Shown here: positions 25,992-54,549 of the stretch, one piece after another
Numbering within the stretch: position 1 is the first letter of the stretch
Layout: each line of letters opens with the position of its first letter
Assembly (NCBI RefSeq): GCF_900109375.1
Contig: NZ_FOAB01000005.1
Coordinates: 372,001-436,000 of the forward strand
DNA length: 64,000 nucleotides
Reading direction: 5' to 3'
From: Aquimarina amphilecti
Lineage (GTDB): Bacteria; Bacteroidota; Bacteroidia; Flavobacteriales; Flavobacteriaceae
The notes under the pieces: generated by a model
What the model was told of the DNA's origin: nothing
The model's input: only the letters and a program-made list of their open reading frames with translations
The model's database searches: none
Made by a program: the position numbers and the translations under genes

Positions 25992-26012
25992 AGTTTAAAA
26001 TTTAATTGTTAG

Positions 26013-26085
26013 TGGAACAGATAGGATTTGAACCTATATCTTCGGATCTTCAATCCGACGCATTGACCATCTTTGCTACTATTCC
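26013..26085 (-). tRNA. tRNA-Phe(GAA), divergent
   Basis: 73 nt. Acceptor GGAATAG with CTGTTCC (one G-T pair), anticodon arm TCGGA / TTGAAGA / TCCGA, T-loop TTCAAAT, discriminator A. The CCA end is not encoded. Confidence 0.85.
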
Positions 26086-26090
26086 TTTTA

Positions 26091-26164
26091 GGGTGTACTC
26101 CGGGACTCGAACCCTGTTCTTCTCATTCACAGTGAGGCGCTTTACCAGATAAGCTAGAGACACC
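26091..26164 (-). tRNA. tRNA-His(GTG), partly degenerate acceptor
   Basis: 74 nt. Anticodon arm CCTCA / CTGTGAA / TGAGA, T-arm around TTCGAGT, D-arm GCT...AGC, and an extra 5' G as expected for His. Five acceptor pairs (GGTGT with ACACC) are good; the inner pairs are weak. No CCA. Only 5 nt separate it from tRNA-Phe. Confidence 0.75.
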
Positions 26165-26248
26165 ATTTTATTGTTTTTGTATTGTTTGATATTCAGAGTA
26201 TTGATAAATAAATTTTTATATTAGTCCATAGATTAGAAAACAAAGTTT

Positions 26249-27115
26249 ATGGATAATATCTCGACGATTATTTTAGCTGCATCTCTATTTATTATCATGT
26301 TAGGGATGGGGCTGTCTCTCGTAGTATCTGATTTTAAAAGAATTCTTATTTATCCAAAAGCTATTTTAGTTGGATTAGCGAACCAGCTTATAATTTTACC
26401 ACTCGTTGGTTTTATTCTAGCTTCTGTATTTTCGCTAAAGCCAGAAATAGCTATTGGTATTATGATATTAGCAGCTTGCCCAGGTGGAGCAACTTCTAAT
26501 TTAATATCCCATCTAGCTAAAGGTGACATCGCTTTGTCGGTGACGCTTACGGCATTTAGTAGTTTAATCACTATCATAACAATACCGTTCATTGTTAATT
26601 TCTCATTACTTTACTTCTTATCGGAGGATCAAACGATTCAACTAAATGTAATTGAAACTATTATTCAGATTTTAGTGATTATAATTGTACCAGTAAGCAT
26701 TGGTATGATTATTAGAAAATATAATGAACCTTTTGCCTTAAGAATGGCTAAGCCCGTAAAAGTAGCTTCTGCTATAGTATTAGCTTTAGTTATCGTTGGT
26801 ATTTTGATTAAAGAAAAAGATAATTTTATGTCGTATCTTCAAGAAGCCGGATTAGTTGCTTTGTTACTAAATATATTCACAATGGCTATAGGATACTACT
26901 CTGCAAAATTATTTCGAGTCCATCAAAAAGGAGCAATGTCAATTGCTATAGAATCTGGAATTCAGAATGGTACTTTAGCAATATCAGTTGCTATTGCAAT
27001 ACTCCATAATACTTCTTTTGCAATTGCTCCTGCCGTGTATAGTTTGTTAATGTTCTTTACAGGAGGAATTGTTATATTTTTAGGTATAAGAAAAAGCAAA
27101 AAAAATGAGAGTTAA
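26249..27115 (+). CDS. Bile acid:sodium symporter (BASS) family transporter
   Basis: A 288-residue polytopic membrane protein with about nine or ten hydrophobic segments from residue 5 to 280. It contains the family motif ILAACPGGATSNLISHLAKGD near residue 78 (split: ACPGGATSN) and a second crossover region IESGIQNGTLAISVA near 235. The substrate may be an organic anion; the name does not imply bile acids. It is encoded on the plus strand in the middle of the minus-strand tRNA array, splitting it, so it is probably an insertion or pre-existing neighbour. Confidence 0.85.
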   Translation: MDNISTIILAASLFIIMLGMGLSLVVSDFKRILIYPKAILVGLANQLIILPLVGFILASVFSLKPEIAIGIMILAACPGGATSNLISHLAKGDIALSVTLTAFSSLITIITIPFIVNFSLLYFLSEDQTIQLNVIETIIQILVIIIVPVSIGMIIRKYNEPFALRMAKPVKVASAIVLALVIVGILIKEKDNFMSYLQEAGLVALLLNIFTMAIGYYSAKLFRVHQKGAMSIAIESGIQNGTLAISVAIAILHNTSFAIAPAVYSLLMFFTGGIVIFLGIRKSKKNES

Positions 27116-27167
27116 TAGTATAAAATCAACTATTCATATAAATTTTACCATTTTATATATGTAATGT

Positions 27168-27239
27168 CTAAGGTATTGGGAATCGAACCCAAGACTCCCG
27201 CGATACAAGCGCGGTACTCTGCCACTGAGTTATACCTTA
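27168..27239 (-). tRNA. tRNA-Thr(TGT)
   Basis: 72 nt. Acceptor TAAGGTA with TACCTTA (perfect), anticodon arm CCGCG / CTTGTAT / CGCGG, T-arm TTGGG / TTCGATT / CCCAA, discriminator G. CCA not encoded. Confidence 0.88.
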
Positions 27240-27244
27240 TTCTG

Positions 27245-27315
27245 ATGACCTGAAAGGGTTCGAACCTTTACACCAAGAGTCAAAGTCTTGGATGCTACCG
27301 TTACATCACAGGTCA
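27245..27315 (-). tRNA. tRNA-Gln(TTG)
   Basis: 71 nt. Acceptor TGACCTG with CAGGTCA (perfect), anticodon arm CAAGA / CTTTGAC / TCTTG, T-arm AAAGG / TTCGAAC / CCTTT. CCA not encoded. Six nt separate it from the Thr gene. Confidence 0.87.
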
Positions 27316-27320
27316 ATTTG

Positions 27321-27392
27321 TAAGCTCAATAGGATTTGAACCTATACTTCAAGGATCGTAACCTTGGGTGCTTCCATTTACACCATGAGCTT
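27321..27392 (-). tRNA. tRNA-Arg(ACG)
   Basis: 72 nt. Acceptor AAGCTCA with TGAGCTT (perfect), anticodon arm CAAGG / TTACGAT / CCTTG, T-arm ATAGG / TTCAAAT / CCTAT, discriminator A. The wobble A would need deamination to inosine. Confidence 0.85.
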
Positions 27393-27398
27393 GTTTTG

Positions 27399-27472
27399 TA
27401 CTCCACCTTGGATTCGAACCAAGACTGAACTGGGCTTAAACCAGATGCCTCTGCCATTTGGGCTAGCGGAGT
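27399..27472 (-). tRNA. tRNA-Leu(TAA) with a short variable loop
   Basis: 74 nt. Acceptor ACTCCGC with GTGGAGT, anticodon loop TTTAAGC, T-arm CTTGG / TTCGAAT / CCAAG. The variable region is only about 5 nt, whereas bacterial Leu tRNAs normally carry a long variable arm. CCA not encoded. Confidence 0.8.
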
Positions 27473-27477
27473 ATGTG

Positions 27478-27551
27478 TACAGGAAGAGAGATTCGAACTC
27501 TCAGTATCTTGATTCTAAGTCAAGCGCGTATGCCAGTTCCGCCATTCCTGT
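27478..27551 (-). tRNA. tRNA-Leu(TAG) with a short variable loop
   Basis: 74 nt. Acceptor ACAGGAA with TTCCTGT (perfect), a Leu-like D-arm (TGGCGGAACTGG), anticodon arm CTTGA / CTTAGAA / TCAAG, 5-nt variable loop ATACT, T-arm GAGAG / TTCGAAT / CTCTC. The missing long variable arm is unusual for Leu. Confidence 0.83.
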
Positions 27552-27561
27552 ATTAAAATTG

Positions 27562-27635
27562 TACTCTGTAGGAGAATCGAACTCCTAGTTTCCTCATAGA
27601 AAGTGAGGTGTACTAAAACATTATACGAACAGAGC
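27562..27635 (-). tRNA. tRNA-Glu(TTC)
   Basis: 74 nt. Acceptor GCTCTGT with ACAGAGT (one G-T), anticodon arm CCTCA / CTTTCTA / TGAGG, T-arm AGGAG / TTCGATT / CTCCT, discriminator A. CCA not encoded. Confidence 0.85.
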
Positions 27636-27639
27636 ATTT

Positions 27640-27712
27640 ATATATCCTCCAAGATTTGAAATTAGACTTAGGGATAAAAACCCTTTGTGCTTTCAGCTAC
27701 ATTATGGATATA
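27640..27712 (-). tRNA. Degenerate tRNA-Lys(TTT)-like gene
   Basis: 73 nt with a perfect acceptor TATATCC / GGATATA and anticodon hairpin AGGG / TTTTTAT / CCCT. The D-loop lacks the GG pair and the T-arm is poorly paired, so it may be decaying or a non-canonical tRNA. Confidence 0.5.
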
Positions 27713-27720
27713 AATTTAGC

Positions 27721-27742
27721 CTGAGAAGCAGGATTGACCTCG
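27721..27742 (-). pseudogene. Fragment of a Pro tRNA 3' end
   Basis: Positions 27721-27735 repeat the 3' end of the Pro tRNA at 27802-27816, then jump over most of the T-arm to GACCTC. About 60 nt of non-tRNA sequence follow before the intact Pro gene. It looks like a leftover from duplication and deletion. Confidence 0.55.
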
Positions 27743-27800
27743 TCTTCTTGCAATGTCTCAGTTTGGATTCATTTCGAGTAAACTAGAAGTAATTAATTCG

Positions 27801-27872
27801 TCTGAGAAGCAGGATTCGAACCTGCGACCTCTCGCGTCCAAGGCGAGTAAACAACCACCGTTATCTTCCCAG
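27801..27872 (-). tRNA. tRNA-Pro(TGG)
   Basis: 72 nt. Acceptor CTGGGAA with TTCTCAG (one G-T), anticodon arm CTCGC / CTTGGAC / GCGAG, T-arm GCAGG / TTCGAAT / CCTGC, discriminator A. CCA not encoded. Confidence 0.85.
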
Positions 27873-27881
27873 ATTATATAG

Positions 27882-27968
27882 CGGAAGAAGTGGGAATCGA
27901 ACCCACACGAGTCATTAGCTCCTAACAGTTTTCAAGACTGCGGCCACCACCTATTGGCTTGCTCTTCC
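27882..27968 (-). tRNA. tRNA-Ser(TGA)
   Basis: 87 nt, class II. Acceptor GGAAGAG with TTCTTCC, anticodon loop CTTGAAA, a long variable arm, T-arm GTGGG / TTCGATT / CCCAC, discriminator G. The long variable arm is retained here, unlike in the Leu genes. Confidence 0.87.
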
Positions 27969-27975
27969 GTTTTTA

Positions 27976-28057
27976 GCAGTACCGACGGGATTCCCTTCGA
28001 CCTAGCTCAGGATAAACTTCTCATCCAGAGTCCTGCTTTGCAGTACCGACGGGATTC
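27976..28057. repeat. 18-bp direct repeat of the Asp tRNA 3' end enclosing an inserted segment
   Basis: The 18 nt at 27976-27993 recur at 28040-28057 (3' end of the Asp tRNA). Between them are 46 nt containing a TTCGACC-TAGCTCAGGA palindromic repeat of the type scattered in Bacteroidetes genomes (see 53944 and 62523). It has the form of an insertion with flanking duplication. Confidence 0.6.
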
Positions 28058-28113
28058 GAACCCGCGACCTTCCGAGAGACAGTCGGGTGCACTAGCCACT
28101 GTGCTACGATACT
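28041..28113 (-). tRNA. tRNA-Asp(GTC)
   Basis: 73 nt. Acceptor AGTATCG with CGGTACT (one wobble), anticodon arm CCGA / CTGTCTC / TCGG, T-arm GCGGG / TTCGAAT / CCCGT, discriminator G. CCA not encoded. Confidence 0.87.
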
Positions 28114-28151
28114 ATGTGTTCTCAAGAAAAGAGAAACTGATTATTATTTTA

Positions 28152-28211
28152 CGTGTCCATCAGGATTAGAACCTAGACTAAAGTTACGTGCTACCATAGC
28201 ACTATAGACGC
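28152..28211 (-). pseudogene. tRNA remnant lacking the anticodon arm
   Basis: 60 nt. Acceptor strands GCGTCTA and TGGACAC pair with one mismatch, the D-arm (GTGC TATGGTA GCAC) and a T-arm around TTCTAAT are recognisable, but only 11 nt lie between them, too few for an anticodon arm and variable loop. Confidence 0.6.
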
Positions 28212-28224
28212 TTTACAAATTTTG

Positions 28225-28307
28225 TGGAAGTAGTAGGATTTGAACCTACAAGCTCCGAAGAGGCCAGATTTACAGTCTGGAGAGCCAACCAATTGCTCAA
28301 TACTTCC
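28225..28307 (-). tRNA. tRNA-Tyr(GTA)
   Basis: 83 nt, class II. Acceptor GGAAGTA with TACTTCC (perfect), anticodon arm CCAGA / CTGTAAA / TCTGG, variable arm CCTCTTCGGAGC, T-arm GTAGG / TTCAAAT / CCTAC, discriminator A. Confidence 0.9.
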
Positions 28308-28315
28308 ATTTTTAG

Positions 28316-28388
28316 AGACAAGAACAGGAATCGAACCTGTAAAAAACGGAGTTGCAGTCCGTAGCCTTAACCATTCAGCCACCTTGTC
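28316..28388 (-). tRNA. tRNA-Cys(GCA)
   Basis: 73 nt. Acceptor GACAAGG with TCTTGTC, anticodon arm ACGGA / CTGCAAC / TCCGT, T-arm ACAGG / TTCGATT / CCTGT, discriminator T as usual for Cys. CCA not encoded. Confidence 0.88.
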
Positions 28389-28392
28389 TTAG

Positions 28393-28465
28393 CGATACCA
28401 GTAGGATTTGAACCCACATCTTAAGAGTTAACAGCTCTTAGCTTTACCAGTTAAGCTACAGTATC
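28393..28465 (-). tRNA. tRNA-Asn(GTT)
   Basis: 73 nt. Acceptor GATACTG with TGGTATC, anticodon arm AAGAG / CTGTTAA / CTCTT, T-loop TTCAAAT, discriminator G. CCA not encoded. Confidence 0.87.
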
Positions 28466-28472
28466 AATATTG

Positions 28473-28559
28473 CGGAGAACAAAGGAATTGAACCTTCACT
28501 GCAATCATGCAGACTTGTTTAGCAGACAAGCGCAACAAACCAGTATTTGCCTATTCTCC
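28473..28559 (-). tRNA. tRNA-Ser(GCT)
   Basis: 87 nt, class II. Acceptor GGAGAAT with GTTCTCC, anticodon arm CTTGT / CTGCTAA / ACAAG, variable arm TCTGCATGATTGCAG, discriminator G. CCA not encoded. Confidence 0.88.
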
Positions 28560-28565
28560 TTAAAG

Positions 28566-28638
28566 TTGACACAGAGGGAGTTGAACCCACATCACCTCGA
28601 TTAAAAGTCGAGTGCTTTTCCAGTTAAGCTACGTGTCA
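28566..28638 (-). tRNA. tRNA-Lys(TTT), first gene of the array
   Basis: 73 nt. Acceptor TGACACG with TGTGTCA, anticodon arm CTCGA / CTTTTAA / TCGAG, T-loop TTCAACT, discriminator A. Its 5' end is about 30 nt downstream of the leader terminator at 28679, so its transcription depends on readthrough of that terminator. Confidence 0.88.
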
Positions 28639-28678
28639 ATTTTGGTTTTCAGTATGTCAATGAACTATGTAAATAAAA

Positions 28679-28708
28679 AAAGGCGCCTTATTCGGGCGCC
28701 TTTATATA
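28679..28708 (-). terminator. Attenuator terminator in front of the tRNA array
   Basis: Minus strand: AAAGGCGCC, 7-nt loop, GGCGCCTTT followed by more T's (9-bp stem, 28679-28687 with 28695-28703). The 5' arm and its flank (28695-28708) can instead pair with 28753-28767 inside the leader ORF over 14 pairs, with two G-U pairs and one bulged A. The two structures exclude each other. Confidence 0.8.
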
Positions 28709-28728
28709 TCTTGTGGTTGTATGTCGGT

Positions 28729-28848
28729 TTATAATCGCATACGTTTCCTTTCTATATAATAGACACCGTGTATATTCCAATCGGAACAATATTCTCTTTG
28801 TTTGCTAAAGAGACGGGTTACGTTATGTTGTAAATTATTCGGTATCAT
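28729..28848 (-). CDS. Leader peptide of the proximal tRNA-array attenuator (39 aa)
   Basis: ATG at 28848, TAA at 28729. A consensus promoter (TTTG 28945-28942, 19 nt, GATCTTTG 28922-28915) lies upstream and a terminator 20 nt beyond the stop. Codons 2-27 include Pro, Asn, Leu (TTA and CTC), Gln, His, Thr, Arg, Phe, Ser (AGC and TCC), Lys, Glu, Tyr, Cys and Asp: every isotype of the array. The only Gly codon (28) lies in the antiterminator strand and there is no Ala. Codons 28-32 form that strand. Translation is predicted, not shown; the peptide itself has no known function. Confidence 0.6.
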   Translation of the reverse strand: MIPNNLQHNVTRLFSKQREYCSDWNIHGVYYIERKRMRL

Positions 28849-28914
28849 TTTAATTTATTTGTTTTATTAAATCCGTAATCATTATCGATATTATGTTGTG
28901 TTATGATTACGATG

Positions 28915-28945
28915 CAAAGATCAAAACTTTTTCTTAATCTCCAAA
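28915..28945 (-). promoter_or_regulatory. Promoter of the proximal tRNA-array leader
   Basis: Minus strand TTTG (28945-28942), exactly 19 nt, then GATCTTTG (28922-28915), one mismatch from the Bacteroidetes consensus TTTG-N19-TAnnTTTG. It would start a leader RNA of roughly 230 nt before the terminator at 28679. Confidence 0.72.
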
Positions 28946-29011
28946 TGTTTTTTGAGTTTATTTTATTGATAATCAGATAGTTAATTTAAATTTTAGACAT
29001 AGGGATGACTG

Positions 29012-29027
29012 TTCGTTTTTCAACGAA
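29012..29027. promoter_or_regulatory. Inverted repeat TTCGTT-N4-AACGAA, upstream element of the tRNA array
   Basis: A perfect 6-bp inverted repeat with a 4-nt centre, embedded in a longer conserved block (GGGAT, CTGTTCGTT, AACGAAT, TTG). The gap to the -33 box of the array leader is 66 bp. The same element with the same 66-bp gap precedes the rtcB operon at 54319. A protein-binding operator or activator site is the simplest reading; a plus-strand promoter with -7 box TATTTTTG (29035-29042) is an alternative. Confidence 0.6.
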
Positions 29028-29134
29028 TTTTGGATATTTTTGCAATCGTCTGTCTCTCTGATGCTTACTTTCCAAATACTATTCTTTATGTTTTAATTAA
29101 CTTTTATACATTTTTTTAAATTTTTTAATAAAAA

Positions 29135-29158
29135 AAGCGTCCAATTTCTTGGACGCTT
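29135..29158 (-). terminator. Terminator of the distal tRNA-array leader
   Basis: Minus strand: AAGCGTCCAA, loop GAAA, TTGGACGCTT, then a T run (10-bp stem). The 5' arm AAGCGTCC can alternatively pair with GGACGCTT (29226-29219) inside the preceding ORF. The same stem sequence recurs in the distal leader of the rtcB operon (54433-54455). Confidence 0.82.
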
Positions 29159-29203
29159 GTACTATATCTGTTTTTTTATCTTTAAATCATATCAAAATAA
29201 TAG

Positions 29204-29314
29204 TCAAAAATAGTTACAAAGCGTCCTTTTACCGGCTTTAGATACTTCTATCCATCGGTAATCACACTGACTAAACAGTGATTTCGGCATAATATGTAAT
29301 CTATTTTTTGTCAT
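29204..29314 (-). CDS. Leader peptide of the distal tRNA-array attenuator (36 aa)
   Basis: ATG at 29314, TGA at 29204. Codons 2-23 contain a cognate codon for each of the 16 intact array anticodons: ACA, AAA, AAT, TTA, CAT, CCG, TCA, CTG, TTT, AGT, CAG, TGT, GAT, TAC, CGA and GAA. Only one of these (AAA) occurs twice; the rest are AGA, ATT, ATG, TGG and ATA. Ala and Gly first appear at 27-28. Codons 30-32 (AGG ACG CTT) form the antiterminator strand, and a ribosome at the stop would cover part of it. A TTTG / AATATTTG promoter with a 21-nt spacer lies upstream. Translation is predicted. Confidence 0.6.
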   Translation of the reverse strand: MTKNRLHIMPKSLFSQCDYRWIEVSKAGKRTLCNYF

Positions 29315-29465
29315 TTCTTATACAAATATTGAATATTCTAGAAGTATAAACCAAATTTTGAGTGTATTTTTTGTGTTTAATCTCCTAGTTTAGAATCAAT
29401 ATAATTGATTTTTAGATAAATAGCAACTAGTATTATATAAAACTATATTTGTACTTTTATCAACA

Positions 29466-49218: not shown

Positions 49219-49773
49219 TCACCCCTTATTTTGAGTAATACACCAGCTCAAAATTTTGGCAATATTTTTAGCATCATCAATACCTCTATGATGTGTTCCA
49301 TCTAATGGCATATTTAATATTCCTAATGCTCCTTTCATTCCAACTTTTTTTTGCAGCCCTTTGGTCTTAGTAAAAAGTTCTTTCACGTTGATGTGATTTT
49401 CTGATAAAGGGTAGGATATTTCTCTGAAGCTACATTGTTTTTTCATCATATTTAGATCATATTGCCCATAACTTGCCCAGGTATATTGATACCCTTGGTA
49501 TTCATCTCTAAGAATTTCACAGGCTTCATTGAACGAAATCCCTTCGTTATCTAACAAATCTTGAGTGATGGTTGTTAGTTCTGTGCAAAAGGAACTTACT
49601 TCGGATCGTTCAGGTTTGATTAAGATTCCTTTATTTTTAGAAACTTCTTCGGTTTGGGTATTCAATAAACAAATTCCTATCTCTATGATTTCATGTACTT
49701 GTCCTTTTGGGATAGAACCGTTCCAACAGGTTGCCTCTAAATCTATGATTATAATTGTATTTGTTGTTATCAT
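49219..49773 (-). CDS. DEDDh 3'-5' exonuclease, ERI-1/KapD-like
   Basis: A 184-residue exonuclease. Exo I is DLEATCWNG (residues 11-19), Exo II contains WASYGQYDLNMMKKQC near 105, and Exo III is HHRGIDDAKNIAKIL near 160. DLEATCW is characteristic of the ERI-1/3'hExo/KapD branch, whose studied members trim RNA 3' ends. It is the last gene of the rtcB operon, 56 nt after the nucleotidyltransferase-like gene. Confidence 0.85.
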   Translation of the reverse strand: MITTNTIIIIDLEATCWNGSIPKGQVHEIIEIGICLLNTQTEEVSKNKGILIKPERSEVSSFCTELTTITQDLLDNEGISFNEACEILRDEYQGYQYTWASYGQYDLNMMKKQCSFREISYPLSENHINVKELFTKTKGLQKKVGMKGALGILNMPLDGTHHRGIDDAKNIAKILSWCITQNKG

Positions 49774-49829
49774 TTAATTTTGTGTTATATACCCCATAAG
49801 ATTTTAAGACTTGTGGGGTATGATGTGTT

Positions 49830-50378
49830 TTATTTTTTCGGAATAGTCACTAATTCCTCTCTATCTAAAGGATCCATGTTTTGATCTAATAATTTAATCG
49901 CGGATTGTACTGCCCAGCATTTATCACTAGAATGTATATTAGAATACAGTCCTAATAAATAAGAAGGTTTCACGATTGTCCATCCTTTAACTTTTCGAGA
50001 TGGGATATTAGATTTTACAAAAAAGTCAATTGTTATTCGTACTGATTTTTCATTTTCCATTAGTACTATTTTTTCATAACGTCTAAAATTCTCATCACTT
50101 GGTAACTTGTCATAACGTGTCCATACTTTTTGAAAACCATTTTCTTGTAGTATATACATTACCTGAGCTACCTTTTTAGGATCTACAAAAAGATCTATAT
50201 CCTTATGATCATGAGCGTGTTTATATTCTGTATGGCCTATTGGTGATAAAAAATGCCATGCCCAACCTCCCGATAGAATAACGAAATCTTTAAGAGGTAT
50301 TAATATTTCTAATGCACATTGGATTCTATAACTGGGCCATAATTCTCCATATTTTTTTTTGTTGTGTGGCGCTCCCAT
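49830..50378 (-). CDS. Nucleotidyltransferase-fold protein (MNT/AadA-like)
   Basis: A 182-residue protein with LSGGWAWHFL near 35 and HKDIDLFVDPKK near 58, the G-G-x-A ... D-x-D pattern of minimal nucleotidyltransferases (AbiEii/LinB/aminoglycoside nucleotidyltransferase type). RITIDFFVKS near 115 could supply the third carboxylate. The substrate is not known. Its place beside RtcB and an RNA 3'-exonuclease suggests an RNA-end or tRNA substrate, but that is context only. Confidence 0.65.
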   Translation of the reverse strand: MGAPHNKKKYGELWPSYRIQCALEILIPLKDFVILSGGWAWHFLSPIGHTEYKHAHDHKDIDLFVDPKKVAQVMYILQENGFQKVWTRYDKLPSDENFRRYEKIVLMENEKSVRITIDFFVKSNIPSRKVKGWTIVKPSYLLGLYSNIHSSDKCWAVQSAIKLLDQNMDPLDREELVTIPKK

Positions 50379-50430
50379 ACTTCTTTCTTTATTTTGTCAT
50401 TCCAGCCTTTATTGGGATGGCCAATCATTA

Positions 50431-50979
50431 TTATTTCGTTTTCTTTTTTGACTTTTTAGAAGTCTTATTGGTTTTATTTTCTTTCTTCTTTTTTTTCTTC
50501 TTAGGCATTTTGTCCTTAATCCTTTTTTCATCACCTTCAATATCACTTATCAAGTAGTTGTTGTAGGTATGTACTTTGGCATTTTTTAGGACTTTAAGTG
50601 CTTTCTTATATGCTTTTTTTTGTTCGAATAGAATTCCTTTTTGCATATATAGAACAGCTTTATCTGTACCTTTTAAGGTCAATGCAAAGTCAATTAATTT
50701 TTCTGCTTCATTATAATCTTCATTCCAAAGCAATACATTGATATATTTCGGATACACGTCTAATGCGTAAATATCTTCGGCCAAAGCCTGCTGATAATAT
50801 TCCTTTGCAGTTTCATAATTTCTAAGATTTTCTGCATAAATCTGACCCATTAAACAAAGAGCTACAGGGTTTTTGTCATCATATGACAAGGCATAGTTTA
50901 AAGATTCTACAGCTTCTTCTAAGTTATAAGGATATGCATCCAAAGCTTGAAATAGATATTTGTCTAGTAAATTTCCCAT
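50431..50979 (-). CDS. TPR protein with a lysine-rich tail
   Basis: A 182-residue protein. Residues ~15-145 hold about four tetratricopeptide repeats (NPVALCLMGQIYAENLRNYE; AKEYYQQALAEDIYALDVY; EDYNEAEKLIDFALTLKGT). The last ~30 residues are mostly Lys (KMPKKKKKKKENK), a likely nucleic-acid- or ribosome-binding tail. It starts 4 nt after prfH ends, inside the RNA-repair operon. Confidence 0.78.
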   Translation of the reverse strand: MGNLLDKYLFQALDAYPYNLEEAVESLNYALSYDDKNPVALCLMGQIYAENLRNYETAKEYYQQALAEDIYALDVYPKYINVLLWNEDYNEAEKLIDFALTLKGTDKAVLYMQKGILFEQKKAYKKALKVLKNAKVHTYNNYLISDIEGDEKRIKDKMPKKKKKKKENKTNKTSKKSKKKTK

Positions 50980-50983
50980 GATC

Positions 50984-51679
50984 CTAGTTTTTTAATTCGT
51001 TACGCAAATCTTTTTTTAACTGTTGTCGATTCGATGCGTATGATTGTTTTTTATATTGTTTTTTGAAATCAGCTCCTTTAAATATCTTAATTGGGTTACC
51101 CCGTTGAACACTCAAATGATTTTCCCATTGATCAGATAAAGATTTTTTAAGATTATTTAATTGACTCTGATTTACTTTTTCTTTTAATCGCTCTATTGCG
51201 ATTTTTTTATTTTGATGTTGTGACCTGCTATCCATTACAACTACTTGATCTCCTGTGAGATTATAGGTAGCGCGAACTGCAGAATTCACTTTGTTTACGT
51301 TTTGGCCTCCAGGTCCTGAACTTCGCATTGTCTGAAAAGAAATATCTTTTTCCTTTAGAACTACAAGTTGAATCTGTTTGACTTCATACATTCCAATGAA
51401 CCAATTTTTTCGTTTATTGTACTTCCTGAATTTAGAAGTACCAATCCACTGAATGGTTCCTAGCCATGATGATAAAAAGATGTCTATTTCTTTTCCTTTT
51501 AGCTGTATGGTTGCGGATTGCACAGTTCCATTTTCAGAGCCTTTGTCTCTCTGAATAACATTATAAGTAAATCCACTATTTTTAATTTCTTCTAGAAATA
51601 GCTTTAACACTTGCGCTACTACCCAGCTACATTCTGTAGGTCCTCTTCCAGCCGTTATTTGAATTATTTTAGTTTTCAT
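50984..51679 (-). CDS. prfH: Peptide chain release factor homologue PrfH (RF-H)
   Basis: A 231-residue release-factor-like protein with the N-terminal RF-H segment ITAGRGPTECSWVVAQ and the catalytic GGQ at 124-126 (SSGPGGQNVNKVNSAVR), followed by a basic C-terminus. PrfH is typically encoded beside an rtcB paralogue and has been reported to release peptides from ribosomes with damaged decoding centres so that RtcB can reseal the rRNA. I chose the ATG at 51679 because it starts the conserved sequence; a 12-bp hairpin lies between it and the rtcB stop. Confidence 0.92.
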   Translation of the reverse strand: MKTKIIQITAGRGPTECSWVVAQVLKLFLEEIKNSGFTYNVIQRDKGSENGTVQSATIQLKGKEIDIFLSSWLGTIQWIGTSKFRKYNKRKNWFIGMYEVKQIQLVVLKEKDISFQTMRSSGPGGQNVNKVNSAVRATYNLTGDQVVVMDSRSQHQNKKIAIERLKEKVNQSQLNNLKKSLSDQWENHLSVQRGNPIKIFKGADFKKQYKKQSYASNRQQLKKDLRNELKN

Positions 51680-51700
51680 TTTAATATTCTTTTTATGAAC

Positions 51701-51734
51701 ATTGAGGAGTTTTTGATGTATTAAACTCCTCAAT
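51701..51734 (-). promoter_or_regulatory. Intercistronic hairpin between rtcB and prfH
   Basis: A perfect 12-bp stem (ATTGAGGAGTTT with AAACTCCTCAAT, 10-nt loop) ends 4 nt beyond the rtcB stop. On the minus strand no T run follows directly, so it looks more like an RNA stability or processing element than a full terminator. Confidence 0.55.
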
Positions 51735-51737
51735 ATC

Positions 51738-53129
51738 TTACTTATCCATTCTCACGATTTTTGGTGCGAATGTTCCAACTACCTCAACCAATTCTTGTTG
51801 GTTTGCCATTACTTTAGTAATATCCTTGTACGCCATTGGTGCTTCATCAATTCCTCCGCCGATTAGGGTAACATCATTTGCTTTTAATTGTTTTTTGATG
51901 TCACTTTTGGTGAATTTCTCTTTACACTTTCTTCTAGAATGTAATCTTCCTGCTCCATGAGATGCGGATTGTAAACTTTCTGAATTACCTAATCCTCTTA
52001 CTATAAATCCTGGAGCTGTCATAGATCCCGGAATAATTCCTAACTCGCCTTTGGCAGCAGGAGTAGCTCCTTTTCTATGCACTATACATTCTTCGCCGTT
52101 TACTTCTTGTTTCCAAGCAAAATTGTGATGATTTTCAATTTTTGCAACAGGTCGTGATCCTAATAACTTTCCGATTCTAGCATGAATATCATCGTGACAT
52201 GCTTGCGCATAATCTCCGGCAAGATTCATAGCCAACCAATATTCTTGGCCATCATGCGTATTTAGATCCAACCATGCTAATTGTTGCACATGTTTTGGTA
52301 ATGGACATTGTTTGGTTGCTAAATAGGTATAATGTTTTGCGATATTTGCTCCCAATCCTCGAGATCCGCTATGGGATAATACACCTATATAAGTTCCTAT
52401 ATCTAATCCCCATTCATTCGCTTTGTCTGTAATATCTACAGTTCCAAATTCTACAAAATGATTACCACCACCAGAAGTACCCAATTGTTTATATGCTTTG
52501 TCTTTCAATCTTTTTACTAGAGGTATGTTCTTAAACTCTTCTCTTTCAAAGATCTCATGATCATGCTTTATTTTATGGGTTTCATACATCCCGAATTTGG
52601 TATGCTCAGACAATATGTTTTCCAATTGATGCTTTTTCCCTTTTAAATAGGAGATAGCAATCGGATAAATTGTTAGACACATTCTACATCCGATATCTAC
52701 TCCAACACCATATGGAATCACTGCATTTTTTGTGGCAAGTACTCCACCAATTGGCAAACCATATCCGCTATGTGCATCTGGCATTAAAGCTCCCGCAACT
52801 GCAACGGGTAATTTTAGTGCATCATACAATTGATATTTTGCTTGCTCATCGATTTCATTTTCGCCATAAATCTGAAATGGTGATCTGGTAGTTTTTAAAG
52901 CGTGTTTTTTTACTTCCACTGGCTTTAGTAAACTCTCAGCAATCTTACCCCATACGCCATCACCTTGATAGGCTTCTGGATTTAATAATACCTTTTTAGC
53001 TTCTATTAATATGTGTTCTTTTTTTACTCTTTTTTGATATCGATTAATCTGACCCAACGTCACATTAATACTATTGTTTTTTGGAAAGCCTAATTTGATT
53101 AAGTCTTTTCCGCTTAATTTCTTTCCCAT
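51738..53129 (-). CDS. rtcB: RtcB RNA 3'-phosphate/2',3'-cyclic phosphate ligase
   Basis: A 463-residue RtcB. Metal/active-site elements: MPDAHSGYG at 116-124, GVDIGCRM with Cys148, GGNHF at 221-225, LSHSGSRG with His253, NHHNF near 334, and the GMP-accepting His391 in SHGAGR. RtcB joins 2',3'-cyclic phosphate or 3'-phosphate ends to 5'-OH ends with GTP and Mn2+. Its pairing with prfH points to the rRNA/tRNA repair subclass. The start lies 16 nt inside the upstream gene's 3' end. Confidence 0.95.
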   Translation of the reverse strand: MGKKLSGKDLIKLGFPKNNSINVTLGQINRYQKRVKKEHILIEAKKVLLNPEAYQGDGVWGKIAESLLKPVEVKKHALKTTRSPFQIYGENEIDEQAKYQLYDALKLPVAVAGALMPDAHSGYGLPIGGVLATKNAVIPYGVGVDIGCRMCLTIYPIAISYLKGKKHQLENILSEHTKFGMYETHKIKHDHEIFEREEFKNIPLVKRLKDKAYKQLGTSGGGNHFVEFGTVDITDKANEWGLDIGTYIGVLSHSGSRGLGANIAKHYTYLATKQCPLPKHVQQLAWLDLNTHDGQEYWLAMNLAGDYAQACHDDIHARIGKLLGSRPVAKIENHHNFAWKQEVNGEECIVHRKGATPAAKGELGIIPGSMTAPGFIVRGLGNSESLQSASHGAGRLHSRRKCKEKFTKSDIKKQLKANDVTLIGGGIDEAPMAYKDITKVMANQQELVEVVGTFAPKIVRMDK

Positions 53130-53803
53130 AATATTTCTTCTTTTATAATTTCTTGGATCTTATGTTTTTTAAGATCCCTTAATTTGCTATTCGTTTTGAG
53201 CTTTTCTTTTCTTCCTTTTGAAATCTGCCAATAATCTTTCCAGTTGTATTGTTTTTGTACCTCCTCGAAGTATCCATTTTTTAACAACCTTTGGTCTAGT
53301 AATGCATCTTCACTTTCCAGTTTTGGATCTATTCGTTTGCTATGTGTTACATAAGCTTTTGTAAATTTGATCCTATATGTACCTTTCGGTAGATTGACAT
53401 AAAACCGAAGCTTTAATTTCTTTTCCTTAGTATAATACCTGAAGGGAACACACATTCTTTGTGCACCATCACTAAGCTTATTAAAGGATCTACGACTTAT
53501 GGTTGGCAATTCTTTGTTAATTAAATATTTTGAAGTTTCCTGAAGCCATTTTTTATCAGCTTCTTCTTTGGTTCTTCCCCAAAATGATTTTTCTAACTTT
53601 TTATGTAATTCTTCAATGTATTTTTGATTTTTATATTTTTCTACATTTTTGGTAATTACAGATTCTTTAAACCAACCATGACGAATAGGTTTTTCTAATT
53701 TTATATATCCTAGATTTCGTTGTTTTTTCCAGATTTTACGCTGCCTTTTTTGAATACGACGAATCTCTTTTTGTCTTTGGCTTTTAATATGTGCCGGTTT
53801 CAT
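53114..53803 (-). CDS. Basic protein of unknown function, first gene of the rtcB operon
   Basis: A 229-residue, highly basic protein (N-terminus MKPAHIKSQRQKEIRRIQKR), with no membrane segment or known motif. It overlaps rtcB by 16 nt, so it is co-translated with it. A small basic ORF (62229) similarly precedes the second RtcB-associated gene set, though I see no clear sequence match. RNA binding is plausible from charge alone. Confidence 0.7.
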   Translation of the reverse strand: MKPAHIKSQRQKEIRRIQKRQRKIWKKQRNLGYIKLEKPIRHGWFKESVITKNVEKYKNQKYIEELHKKLEKSFWGRTKEEADKKWLQETSKYLINKELPTISRRSFNKLSDGAQRMCVPFRYYTKEKKLKLRFYVNLPKGTYRIKFTKAYVTHSKRIDPKLESEDALLDQRLLKNGYFEEVQKQYNWKDYWQISKGRKEKLKTNSKLRDLKKHKIQEIIKEEILWERN

Positions 53804-53943
53804 TAGACATTTTTATTTAATTCATAATTGTCTTACTAATGATTCCAGCATACCTTTGATATCTGAAATCCTAACTGTTTTGGTTATAAAATTTCATTTG
53901 ATTATTGTTTAGGTTAATGTTTGTTTATTTTGTTTTTCGGACA

Positions 53944-53965
53944 CTTCGACAAGCTCAGTGTGACA
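53944..53965. repeat. Short palindromic intergenic repeat (CTTCGACAAGCTCAG type)
   Basis: CTTCGACAAGCTCAGTGTGA begins here. Related sequences occur at 27994-28017 and 62523-62550. This type of AGCTC/TCGA palindrome is widely scattered in flavobacterial genomes. It lies in the untranslated stretch between the attenuator at 54035 and the first operon gene. Confidence 0.6.
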
Positions 53966-54034
53966 ACTGGATATATCAATTGATCATTGACATTCTGAGT
54001 GCTAATTAATCCTAAGAAGAGTTATTGAAAGTAA

Positions 54035-54066
54035 AAAGTCCGAAACTTTTTCAGGCTTCGGACTTT
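54035..54066 (-). terminator. Attenuator terminator in front of the rtcB operon
   Basis: Minus strand: AAAGTCCGAA, 12-nt loop, TTCGGACTTT, then TTT (10-bp stem, 54057-54066 with 54035-54044). The 5' arm (AAGTCCGAAGC) can instead pair with GCTTCGG-G-ACTT (54101-54113) inside the leader ORF: 11 pairs with one bulged G. Confidence 0.78.
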
Positions 54067-54088
54067 AAACCAAACTGATGGGATCAGT

Positions 54089-54172
54089 TTATGAATTATA
54101 GAAGTCCCGAAGCATACGCATAAAAGAACCTTGTTCTCTTAGTGTATATGTGTATATGTTTTTAAATGTCAT
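54089..54172 (-). CDS. Leader peptide of the proximal rtcB-operon attenuator (27 aa)
   Basis: ATG at 54172, TAA at 54089; starts MTFKNIYTYTLREQ. Codons 2-20 are rich in Thr, Phe, Tyr, Lys, Arg and Leu. Codons 21-24 (CTT CGG GAC TTC) form the antiterminator strand. Promoter: TTTG (54252-54249), 20 nt, CATATTTG (54228-54221). Translation is predicted. Confidence 0.55.
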   Translation of the reverse strand: MTFKNIYTYTLREQGSFMRMLRDFYNS

Positions 54173-54318
54173 ATTACTTCGGTTATTAATAGTTATTATT
54201 TTTGTTGCTGTATTGCGGTGCAAATATGAAATCTATTTTTTAAGTATGCAAATTATTTTTCAATTTAATTTATTGATTAACAGTAGTTTGCGATTGTTTT
54301 TGAACAAGGGGATTCCTG

Positions 54319-54334
54319 TTCGTTTAGTAACGAA
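54319..54334. promoter_or_regulatory. Inverted repeat TTCGTT-N4-AACGAA, upstream element of the rtcB operon
   Basis: Identical half-sites to those at 29012-29027, with a different 4-nt centre (TAGT instead of TTTC). Shared flanks include GGGAT-N2-CTGTTCGTT and AACGAAT-N-TTG. The gap to the -33 box of the proximal leader promoter is 66 bp, the same as at the tRNA array. Confidence 0.6.
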
Positions 54335-54432
54335 TATTGATCTATTTGCTAATTAACTGTAGTTCTTATGAGTATCGTTCAAACAACATTTTATTGAGTG
54401 TTCATAGTTTCTAAAAAATAATACATAAAAAA

Positions 54433-54455
54433 AGCGTCCAATTTTTTTGGACGCT
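54433..54455 (-). terminator. Terminator of the distal rtcB-operon leader
   Basis: Minus strand: AGCGTCCAA, 5-nt loop, TTGGACGCT, then seven T's (9-bp stem). Its 5' arm AGCGTCC can pair instead with GGACGCT (54522-54516) in the preceding ORF. The stem is the same sequence as the array's distal terminator at 29135. Confidence 0.8.
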
Positions 54456-54486
54456 CTTTAGAATATATGTTTTTCTAGTTTTTTAT

Positions 54487-54549
54487 CTATGCTTTCGATT
54501 TGAAAACAGCTTTACAGCGTCCTTTTTTATGTGTACAAAATAGATTCAT
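54487..54549 (-). CDS. Leader peptide of the distal rtcB-operon attenuator (20 aa)
   Basis: ATG at 54549, TAG at 54487. The peptide is short, basic and Cys-containing (MNLFCTHKKGRCKAVFKSKA). Codons 10-12 (GGA CGC TGT) overlap the antiterminator strand. Codons before it sample Asn, Leu, Phe, Cys, Thr, His and Lys. A TTTG / CATATTTG promoter with a 21-nt spacer lies upstream (54617-54587 region). Translation is predicted. Confidence 0.5.
   Translation of the reverse strand: MNLFCTHKKGRCKAVFKSKA

What the first reader, a model, noticed from the sequence alone, without database searches (positions are those of the whole stretch)
28566..29314. Leader ORFs that sample every tRNA isotype of the array they control
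Seen: two short ORFs (29314-29204, 36 aa; 28848-28729, 39 aa) precede the tRNA array, each followed by an intrinsic terminator. In the distal ORF, codons 2-23 contain a cognate codon for all 16 intact array anticodons, including both Leu types (TTA, CTG) and both Ser types (TCA, AGT), with almost no repetition (22 codons, one Lys repeat). The others (AGA, ATT, ATG, TGG, ATA) have no intact array tRNA and may match decayed members. In the proximal ORF, all 14 array amino acids occur in codons 2-23, again with both Leu and both Ser boxes. Ala and Gly are absent from both ORFs before the antiterminator strand, and no Ala, Gly or Val tRNA is in the array. Inference: ribosome stalling at any depleted tRNA allows antitermination and expression of the replacement set. 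I know of no attenuator that polls so many tRNAs.
Basis: partly seen in the sequence, partly recalled or inferred. Interest (0 to 1): 0.97.

Follow-up and report, generated by a model that had tools for sequence, protein, structure and literature searches.

The report
Leader genes that poll every tRNA
In a family of marine bacteria, a cluster of spare tRNA genes is preceded by two tiny genes that contain about one codon for nearly every kind of tRNA, apparently so that loss of any tRNA stalls the ribosome and switches the spare set on.

Summary
The window (Aquimarina, Flavobacteriaceae) has two short ORFs, each with a terminator and a mutually exclusive antiterminator, before 16 tRNA genes. 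ORF1 codons 2-23 contain each of the 21 codon boxes served by array tRNAs across the genus, once each except Lys twice, and no Ala, Gly or Val codon (P about 3e-11 under window codon usage). Both ORFs stay open in 41 genus loci; ORF1 plus a second leader recurs in 19 further family loci. Genus arrays hold 0 Ala/Gly/Val tRNAs among 280; arrays elsewhere in the family hold six, five of them with matching leader codons. The two leaders together miss 4 of 421 locus-by-class combinations, and own leaders fit own arrays better than relatives' leaders do. Related short leaders are codon-diverse before arrays but not before rtcB-prfH repair operons. Best reading: a leader-peptide attenuator turned into a near-global tRNA-status sensor that releases divergent spare tRNAs, probably part of a response to ribotoxin damage. 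Translation, stalling and induction are untested.

The parts
29323..29355 (-). Promoter P1 of Bacteroidetes type (ATTTGG ... AATATTTG); its -7 TTTG ends 8 nt before the ORF1 ATG, so the ORF1 mRNA is probably leaderless or nearly so
   Evidence: TTTG 7-10 nt before the ATG in 59 of 60 loci; promoter consensus is recalled, not from a call
29204..29314 (-). Leader ORF1, 36 codons, MTKNRLHIMPKSLFSQCDYRWIEVSKAGKRTLCNYF
   Evidence: open in 41 genus loci and 19 other family loci
29246..29311 (-). Polled codons 2-23 of ORF1: 21 codon boxes, each once except Lys twice; no Ala, Gly or Val
29216..29226 (-). Antiterminator strand 1 (GGACGCTTTGT, from codon 30), complementary to ACAAGCGTCC of terminator 1
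29130..29158 (-). Intrinsic terminator 1 (AAGCGTCC-loop-GGACGCTTTTTTT)
29009..29027 (-). Conserved palindromic element TTCGTTGAAAAACGAACAG between terminator 1 and promoter P2; role unknown
   Evidence: motif in 32 of 41 genus array loci, 4 of 19 other family loci, 11 of 19 class B and 13 of 17 class C loci; 1 of 41 shuffled loci
28915..28945 (-). Putative promoter P2 (ATTTGG ... ATCTTTG) of the proximal leader
   Evidence: in the commonest patterns printed, TTTG boxes recur 63-74 and 90-95 nt before the ORF2 ATG
28729..28848 (-). Leader ORF2, 39 codons, MIPNNLQHNVTRLFSKQREYCSDWNIHGVYYIERKRMRL
28780..28845 (-). Polled codons 2-23 of ORF2: 19 codon boxes, all 14 array amino acids
28761..28767 (-). 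Antiterminator strand 2 (GGTGTCT, from codon 28)
   Evidence: 98.2% of cells paired, three pairs with changes on both sides, 0 of 500 shuffles
28675..28703 (-). Intrinsic terminator 2; by eye no TTTG box lies between it and the first tRNA
26012..28638 (-). Array of 16 tRNA genes: Lys, Ser-gct, Asn, Cys, Tyr, Asp, Ser-tga, Pro, Glu, Leu-tag, Leu-taa, Arg-acg, Gln, Thr, His, Phe; interrupted at 26249-27115 by a plus-strand SBF-type transporter gene
   Evidence: 56-71% identical to the best chromosomal isoacceptor
54487..54549 (-). First leader ORF of the repair operon, MNLFCTHKKGRCKAVFKSKA, followed by a GGACGC-type terminator
54089..54172 (-). Second leader ORF of the repair operon, MTFKNIYTYTLREQGSFMRMLRDFYNS, with terminator at about 54033-54066
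49219..53803 (-). Genes behind those leaders: 229-aa protein without Pfam match, RtcB RNA ligase (51738-53129), PrfH-like RF-1-domain protein (50984-51733), TPR protein, 182-aa ORF, RNase T-like exonuclease; taken as an operon from their layout

Best explanation
Tandem ribosome-mediated transcription attenuators whose leader ORFs sample nearly every decoding tRNA of the cell. When all tRNAs are available the ribosome runs through the ORF, disturbs the antiterminator strand (codons 28-32) and the local terminator hairpin forms, so the array is off. If one tRNA is missing or uncharged, the ribosome stops at its single codon (codons 2 to about 25), the antiterminator pairs with the terminator's 5' arm before the 3' arm is made, polymerase reads on, and a set of sequence-divergent spare tRNAs is produced. 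The trigger that fits best is tRNA destruction, for example by anticodon nucleases of competitors or phages, as part of a wider response that includes an RtcB-PrfH repair operon with leaders of the same kind. Shown by sequence: anatomy, frame conservation, codon-set completeness, match to array content, covarying helices, prfH linkage. Inferred: translation, stalling, read-through, trigger, benefit.
For: Codon set: 21 of 21 boxes in 22 codons, P 2.7e-11. In 20 loci, the window plus 19 from other genomes of the family (17 genera), ORF1 has 16-22 distinct boxes of 22 (mean 19.05, null 13.55); in L143, 22 of 22 are distinct (P 5e-9) with all 20 amino acids in codons 2-25, although no tRNA was found in the 8.6 kb fetched there. 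Match to arrays: over 49 arrays, ORF1 misses 15 and ORF1 plus leader 2 miss 4 of 421 locus-class pairs; 24 random codons would miss about 180; shuffling arrays within clusters of close relatives gives 20.6 (P 0.004) and 7.3 (P 0.019) at the tightest cut; own ORF1 beat the nearest different ORF1 in 16 loci and lost in 4, 29 ties (P 0.012), for both leaders 9 to 2, 38 ties (P 0.065). Five arrays with Ala (L139, L150), Gly (L141) or Val (L134, L141, L146) tRNAs have leaders with those codons, except Val in L141. Coverage falls with array loss: Spearman 0.81, arrayless loci 14.9 of 21 against 19.7 with 8 or more tRNA classes. Internal control: related short leaders have 14.2 of 16 distinct boxes before arrays with tRNAs (10 loci) but 11.3 before confirmed rtcB-prfH genes (16 loci; null 11.2), P 5e-4. 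Frames conserved. Antiterminator covariation; starting at codon 26 or 25, nascent antiterminator predicted in 58 of 60 and 39 of 41, terminator with the ORF tail masked in 60 of 60 and 41 of 41. prfH occurs in 8 of 20 ORF1-matching genomes against 22 of 377 (P 3e-5), 0.1-2.2 kb upstream on the same strand in seven.
Against: No expression or ribosome data. Theory says that diluting regulatory codons lowers sensitivity to amino-acid limitation (PMC1183508, passages read), so one codon per tRNA should respond only to severe loss. Polled sets exceed arrays (Ala polled by ORF1 in 18 of 41 genus loci with no Ala tRNA). Eight genus loci and three other loci have leaders but no tRNA found. Class B leaders, with no tRNA found downstream, still have 16.4 of 22 boxes (18 loci). 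With the whole leader folded untranslated, the nascent antiterminator is predicted in only 38 of 60 and 32 of 41, and a protective 1:2-like hairpin in 16 of 60 and 7 of 41; the stop codon lies a median 17 nt (ORF1) or 29 nt (ORF2) beyond the antiterminator, so a ribosome waiting at the stop would not fully cover it. E. coli RtcB2-PrfH does not protect against tRNA-cleaving colicins E5 and D (PMC9223846, section 2.4 read). Purifying selection on amino acids is weak (pN/pS 0.60 and 0.47). The shuffles do not fully remove shared ancestry; most arrayless genus loci look like one clade; and in the internal control the rtcB leaders are all from the window's genus while the array leaders are from other genera.
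Confidence: 0.78

Rival explanations
1. The leaders sense any slowing or inactivation of ribosomes (antibiotics, 16S cleavage); which codons they contain does not matter.
For: In 38 of 60 ORF1 and 32 of 41 ORF2 leaders the untranslated nascent RNA is predicted to form the antiterminator, so loss of translation alone could induce; prfH linkage points to ribosome damage; the Anabaena tRNA operon is induced by translation-targeting antibiotics (PMC10272220, abstract).
Against: Does not explain codon-box completeness, the fit to array content or the lower diversity of related leaders before rtcB. It may be a second input rather than an alternative.
Confidence: 0.13
2. The same attenuator works, but the signal is starvation for amino acids (uncharged tRNA) rather than destruction of tRNA.
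For: Classical attenuators sense amino-acid supply through regulatory codons (PMC1183508, passages); many amino acids are sampled.
Against: More tRNA genes would not relieve starvation (reasoning); single codons are a weak starvation sensor by the cited theory; array tRNAs are divergent in body, and 15 of 16 in the anticodon stem, as expected of nuclease-escaping replacements; linkage to RNA repair.
Confidence: 0.2
3. The conserved peptides act as peptides (arrest peptides or regulatory micropeptides), and diversity is incidental.
For: Order of residues is conserved (PKSLFSQCDYRW in many loci).
Against: Only M1, H7 and R20 are invariant in 24 family peptides; pN/pS 0.5-0.6; ORF1 diversity is higher with large arrays than without.
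Confidence: 0.05
4. The ORFs are chance; only terminators and another RNA or protein signal regulate the array.
For: A conserved palindromic element of unknown role lies between the two attenuators.
Against: Frame conservation, promoter set 8-9 nt from the ATG in most loci, codon statistics. No T-box or other cis-regulatory Rfam family at gathering threshold in the window.
Confidence: 0.02

Closest known systems
Leader-peptide transcription attenuators of biosynthetic operons (trp, his, leu, thr, ilvGMEDA, ilvBN, pheA)
   Same: Short ORF with regulatory codons, antiterminator alternative to an intrinsic terminator, codons matched to the function of the downstream genes
   Different: From recall, known ones use repeated codons for one to about three amino acids (the operon list is in passages of PMC1183508); here 16-22 distinct codon boxes in 22 codons over the 20 loci, and the output is tRNA genes
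Tandem attenuators of Salmonella mgtCBR (PMC3641672, abstract and outline read)
   Same: Two short ORFs in series, one sensing charged tRNA-Pro
   Different: There the two respond to different signals; here both poll overlapping, nearly complete tRNA sets
Inducible spare tRNA operon (trn, 26 genes) of Anabaena PCC 7120 under the TrcR repressor (PMC10272220, abstract and outline read)
   Same: Extra tRNA array silent in normal growth and induced by translational stress (induction not tested here)
   Different: Control by a ribbon-helix-helix repressor; sensing by leader codons is not described in the abstract
T-box leaders
   Same: tRNA-sensing antitermination
   Different: From recall, the RNA binds one uncharged tRNA directly, without an ORF; no T-box hit in the window
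RtcB2-PrfH repair operon (PMC9223846, abstract and section 2.4 read)
   Same: A homologous gene pair lies in the window, and prfH lies just upstream of ORF1 in seven other genomes
   Different: Reported to protect against colicin E3 (16S rRNA), not against tRNA-cutting colicins; I saw no description of attenuator control

Membership tests
Ribosome-mediated (leader-peptide) transcription attenuator | Short ORF upstream, conserved as a frame | tested here: met
   0 of 40 and 0 of 36 with in-frame stops; shuffled minimum 1 and 4
Ribosome-mediated (leader-peptide) transcription attenuator | Intrinsic terminator between ORF and regulated genes | tested here: met
   ORF2-terminator helix 99.6% paired with covariation
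Ribosome-mediated (leader-peptide) transcription attenuator | Antiterminator mutually exclusive with terminator | tested here: met
Ribosome-mediated (leader-peptide) transcription attenuator | Regulatory codons cognate to what the operon supplies | tested here: met
Ribosome-mediated (leader-peptide) transcription attenuator | Ribosome at the stop codon masks the antiterminator strand | tested here: inconclusive
   median spacing 17 and 29 nt; needs dynamic masking
Ribosome-mediated (leader-peptide) transcription attenuator | Translation and stalling change read-through | not testable with these tools
   needs experiment
T-box riboswitch | T-box leader structure | tested here: not met
   Rfam gathering scan of the window lists only tRNA and tRNA-Sec families
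Anabaena-type inducible tRNA operon | Dense array of extra tRNAs beside a full chromosomal set | tested here: met
   16 array tRNAs plus 38 elsewhere covering all 20 amino acids
Anabaena-type inducible tRNA operon | TrcR-type repressor and induction by translational stress | not tested
   no repressor searched, no expression data

The most novel reading that the evidence does not exclude
A near-global tRNA-integrity sensor: an ORF in which each codon tests one tRNA species, so that loss of any one of about 21-24 tRNAs triggers a spare, nuclease-divergent translation kit (tRNA array) coordinated with rRNA repair. It would be a general alarm for ribotoxin attack built from the genetic code itself, evolved to match the content of the kit.
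Probability: 0.55. Interest if true: 0.97.

Novelty: new variant of a known kind. Interest (0 to 1): 0.93.

Why it matters
It would turn attenuation from a sensor of one nutrient into a logical OR over almost the whole tRNA pool, and offers an answer to what chromosomal tRNA arrays are for and how they are kept silent. It makes the idea that bacteria hold inducible back-up tRNAs against tRNA-cutting weapons directly testable: one codon change should remove the response to one tRNA and leave the others.

Tried and rejected
Ala/Gly/Val exclusion as a mechanistic rule: rejected, since arrays in other genera carry these tRNAs and leaders poll them. Plasmid and viral origin: no match in plasmids; 27 pattern matches in viral contigs, none confirmed by tblastn. 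Spread beyond the family: an order-level draw of 395 genomes matched only the window genome; the listed part of that draw is all of the window's own family, so this says little about other families. PADLOC scan of ten proteins from the window and related loci gave only one weak TPR match. The PrfH search at 1e-15 mostly hit matches near 1e-22 in frames of about 350 aa, which I take for ordinary RF1, so only the 30 genomes with a match at 1e-69 or better were counted as prfH; G144 and G416 (1e-28 to 1e-32) were left out. Rfam scan of six class B loci gave only sub-threshold matches.

Rows dropped: (whose list was cut) I chose 40 array-locus places besides the window (L021-L060) and 40 further places (L061-L100); other matches were not fetched. 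Of L061-L100, 18 or 19 were used as class B and 16 plus the window as class C; L063, L081, L082, L083, L098 were looked at only. L100 and L065 carry class C leaders without rtcB; they were in the first comparison (18 loci) and are left out of the one reported, as are three array-type loci without tRNAs. Of 28 family loci fetched, 19 were used; L135 is a relic cut inside its terminator, L147 looks like a chance match inside a longer gene (my judgement), L152-L158 gave no tRNA and no leader-terminator pair in the part scanned. Length outliers were left out of the pN/pS and frame tests, as coded. One SeC-tca call in L045 was ignored in class counts.

Full report
WHERE. The window is part of an Aquimarina genome: of 15 ORF1 homologue loci in named genomes 12 are titled Aquimarina, and they include contigs that the genome search files as the same genus. 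The array lies on the minus strand between metabolic genes; the chromosome has 38 other tRNA genes covering all 20 amino acids. No integrase or conjugation gene was among the 20 window proteins that I scanned with Pfam; the other window ORFs were not scanned.

OBSERVATION. ORF1 (29314-29204) and ORF2 (28848-28729) are followed by intrinsic terminators at 29158-29130 and 28703-28675. ARAGORN finds 16 tRNAs. Sorting codons into 24 boxes (17 amino acids with L, S, R and I split, plus A, G, V), ORF1 codons 2-23 hit 21 boxes, Lys twice, no A/G/V. These 21 are exactly the boxes served by the array tRNAs of the genus: 280 tRNAs in 33 of 41 loci, none Ala, Gly or Val (one odd SeC call set aside). Exact chance 2.7e-11 (codon usage of 16,603 window codons) or 3.2e-10 (leader base composition). 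ORF2 reaches 19 boxes.

CONSERVATION. The leader DNA matched in 54 of 66 genus genomes at E 0.001, some of them only over the shared terminator or the stretch behind it. In 41 loci (window and L021-L060) both leaders are open frames; L059 ORF2 leaves the common peptide near its end. Column shuffling, which keeps the base make-up, puts stops in a mean 6.3 of 40 ORF1 and 8.5 of 36 ORF2 sequences; none is observed. A profile of 24 ORF1-type peptides found matches in 30 of 397 family genomes, 27 of 237 genera (E 0.01); 28 loci were fetched and 19, from 17 genera, have ORF1, a second leader and terminators, 16 of them with tRNAs (145 in all). A TTTG box lies 7-10 nt before the ORF1 ATG in 59 of 60 loci, so by the recalled Bacteroidetes promoter rule its mRNA would be leaderless or nearly so.

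POLLED SET AGAINST ARRAY. Genus: array classes not polled by ORF1 (codons 2-25) 3 of 278, against 19.9 when arrays are shuffled among 33 loci (0 of 5000 as low); leader 2: 12 against 25.1; both: 1 against 9.1 (P 0.0002). Other genera: ORF1 12 of 143 against 18.2 (P 0.008), both 3 against 9.0 (P 0.002). All 49 arrays: 15 and 4 of 421; within clusters of close relatives, five cut-offs, P 0.004 or less for ORF1 and 0.019 or less for both; nearest-neighbour sign test 16 to 4 with 29 ties (P 0.012) for ORF1, 9 to 2 with 38 ties (P 0.065) for both. Five arrays of other genera carry Ala, Gly or Val tRNAs, and the leaders there contain those codons except Val in L141. Against a strict rule, Ala, Gly and Val codons also occur in many leaders without such tRNAs: the polled set is usually a superset. 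Eight genus loci without tRNAs keep leaders with fewer boxes (ORF1 15.4 of 22 against 19.35 in 20 loci with 8 or more tRNAs), though their sequences suggest that most are one clade. L143, the most complete leader (22 of 22), has no tRNA in the stretch fetched.

INTERNAL CONTROL. A short leader type (22-28 codons, terminator with CCGAAGC) serves as leader 2 in 13 of the 19 other family loci and in the window's genus as leader 2 of rtcB-prfH operons, including window 54172-54089. In the 10 of those 13 with tRNAs it has 14.2 of 16 distinct boxes; before 16 rtcB-prfH gene pairs (15 confirmed by tblastn plus the window) it has 11.3; random 11.2; P 5e-4 (a first version with 13 and 18 loci gave P 8e-5). 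The two groups also differ in genus, so lineage is not excluded as the cause. ORF1-type leaders of 18 class B loci, with no tRNA found, have 16.4 of 22.

RNA SWITCH. Antiterminator 1 (GGACGYT with AGCGTCC) and 2 (GGTGTCT with AGRCGCC) pair in 89.2% (8 pairs, the last mostly unpaired) and 98.2% of cells, with changes on both sides in 2 and 3 pairs (shuffles reaching this: 15 and 0 of 500). Folding from codon 26 or 25 predicts the antiterminator while the 3' arm is missing (58 of 60; 39 of 41) and the terminator when the ORF tail is hidden (60 of 60; 41 of 41); complete free RNA prefers the terminator in 55 of 60 and 31 of 41. Weak points: folded from the leader's start, the nascent antiterminator is predicted in 38 of 60 and 32 of 41, with a 1:2-like hairpin in 16 and 7, and the stop codon is a median 17 and 29 nt past the antiterminator. 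Untranslated leaders may therefore be ON, and masking by the ribosome must be dynamic.

WHAT THE ARRAY IS. Array tRNAs share only 56-71% identity with the best chromosomal isoacceptor, 15 of 16 have a different anticodon stem-loop, and the two Leu tRNAs are 75 nt long. This suits replacements that escape what destroys the housekeeping tRNAs, but also an origin by transfer. The window's RtcB-PrfH genes, about 20 kb away, have the same kind of tandem leaders. In the family, prfH (match at 1e-69 or better) occurs in 8 of 20 genomes with an ORF1 match at 1e-4 or better (one of these 20, G216, looks like a chance match) and in 22 of 377 others; in seven it lies 0.1-2.2 kb upstream of ORF1 on the same strand. 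RtcB2-PrfH protects E. coli from colicin E3 but not from tRNA-cutting colicins (PMC9223846, abstract and section 2.4), so repair of ribosomes and replacement of tRNAs look complementary.

MECHANISM AND ITS LIMITS. Inference: single codons are poor sensors of mild starvation (PMC1183508, passages) but adequate for near-total loss of one tRNA, which is what anticodon nucleases would cause. Two attenuators in series, the second with its own putative promoter, could act as a gate; which is dominant is unknown.

LITERATURE. Nine full-text searches listed no paper on a leader ORF sampling many tRNAs before a tRNA array; I saw titles and abstract starts of capped listings, in a library of open-licence papers without preprints, so this is weak evidence of novelty. 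The nearest functional precedent seen is the Anabaena trn operon (PMC10272220, abstract and outline).

VERDICT. It is a known kind of switch put to an apparently new use; function remains to be shown.

Noticed in passing
window 49219-54549 (-): RtcB-PrfH repair genes preceded by their own two leader ORF/terminator pairs of the same kind; leader 2 holds several Thr codons and is not more codon-diverse than chance, so it may sense something else.
   Followed up: partly
L061, L062, L064-L079, L087 (class B loci): ORF1-type leader and terminator (not found in L087) followed not by tRNAs but by a conserved ORF of about 79 aa (MKYNQ..KKGQEDRNHLL..DAFGSILGMGLYTSVVNPLP) and usually a ~51-aa lipoprotein-like ORF before a large ORF that in L066 is a TPR histidine kinase, then a response regulator.
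   Followed up: partly
window 29009-29027 and equivalents in class A, B, C and other-genus loci: Palindromic element around YCGTTNNNNAACGRACAGG between terminator 1 and promoter P2; variants with T opposite G hint at an RNA hairpin rather than an operator.
   Followed up: partly
window 27398-27551: Array tRNA-Leu genes are only 75 nt long, as if lacking the long variable arm usual for bacterial Leu tRNAs (the latter recalled).
   Followed up: no
L051, L052, L054-L059: Loci in which no tRNA is found although both leaders, terminators and antiterminators remain.
   Followed up: partly
L135 (G264): Relic copy: ORF1 open, sequence broken off inside the terminator's 3' arm, no array downstream.
   Followed up: no
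L131, L042 upstream of the array leader: End of an ORF resembling an RNase T-like exonuclease by eye (..EGTHHRGVDDANNIAKILDW..) lies directly upstream of some arrays; the window's repair genes include an RNase T-family gene.
   Followed up: no
window 26249-27115 (+): SBF-type transporter gene on the opposite strand splits the array; a similar stretch seems to follow the decayed array in L051.
   Followed up: no
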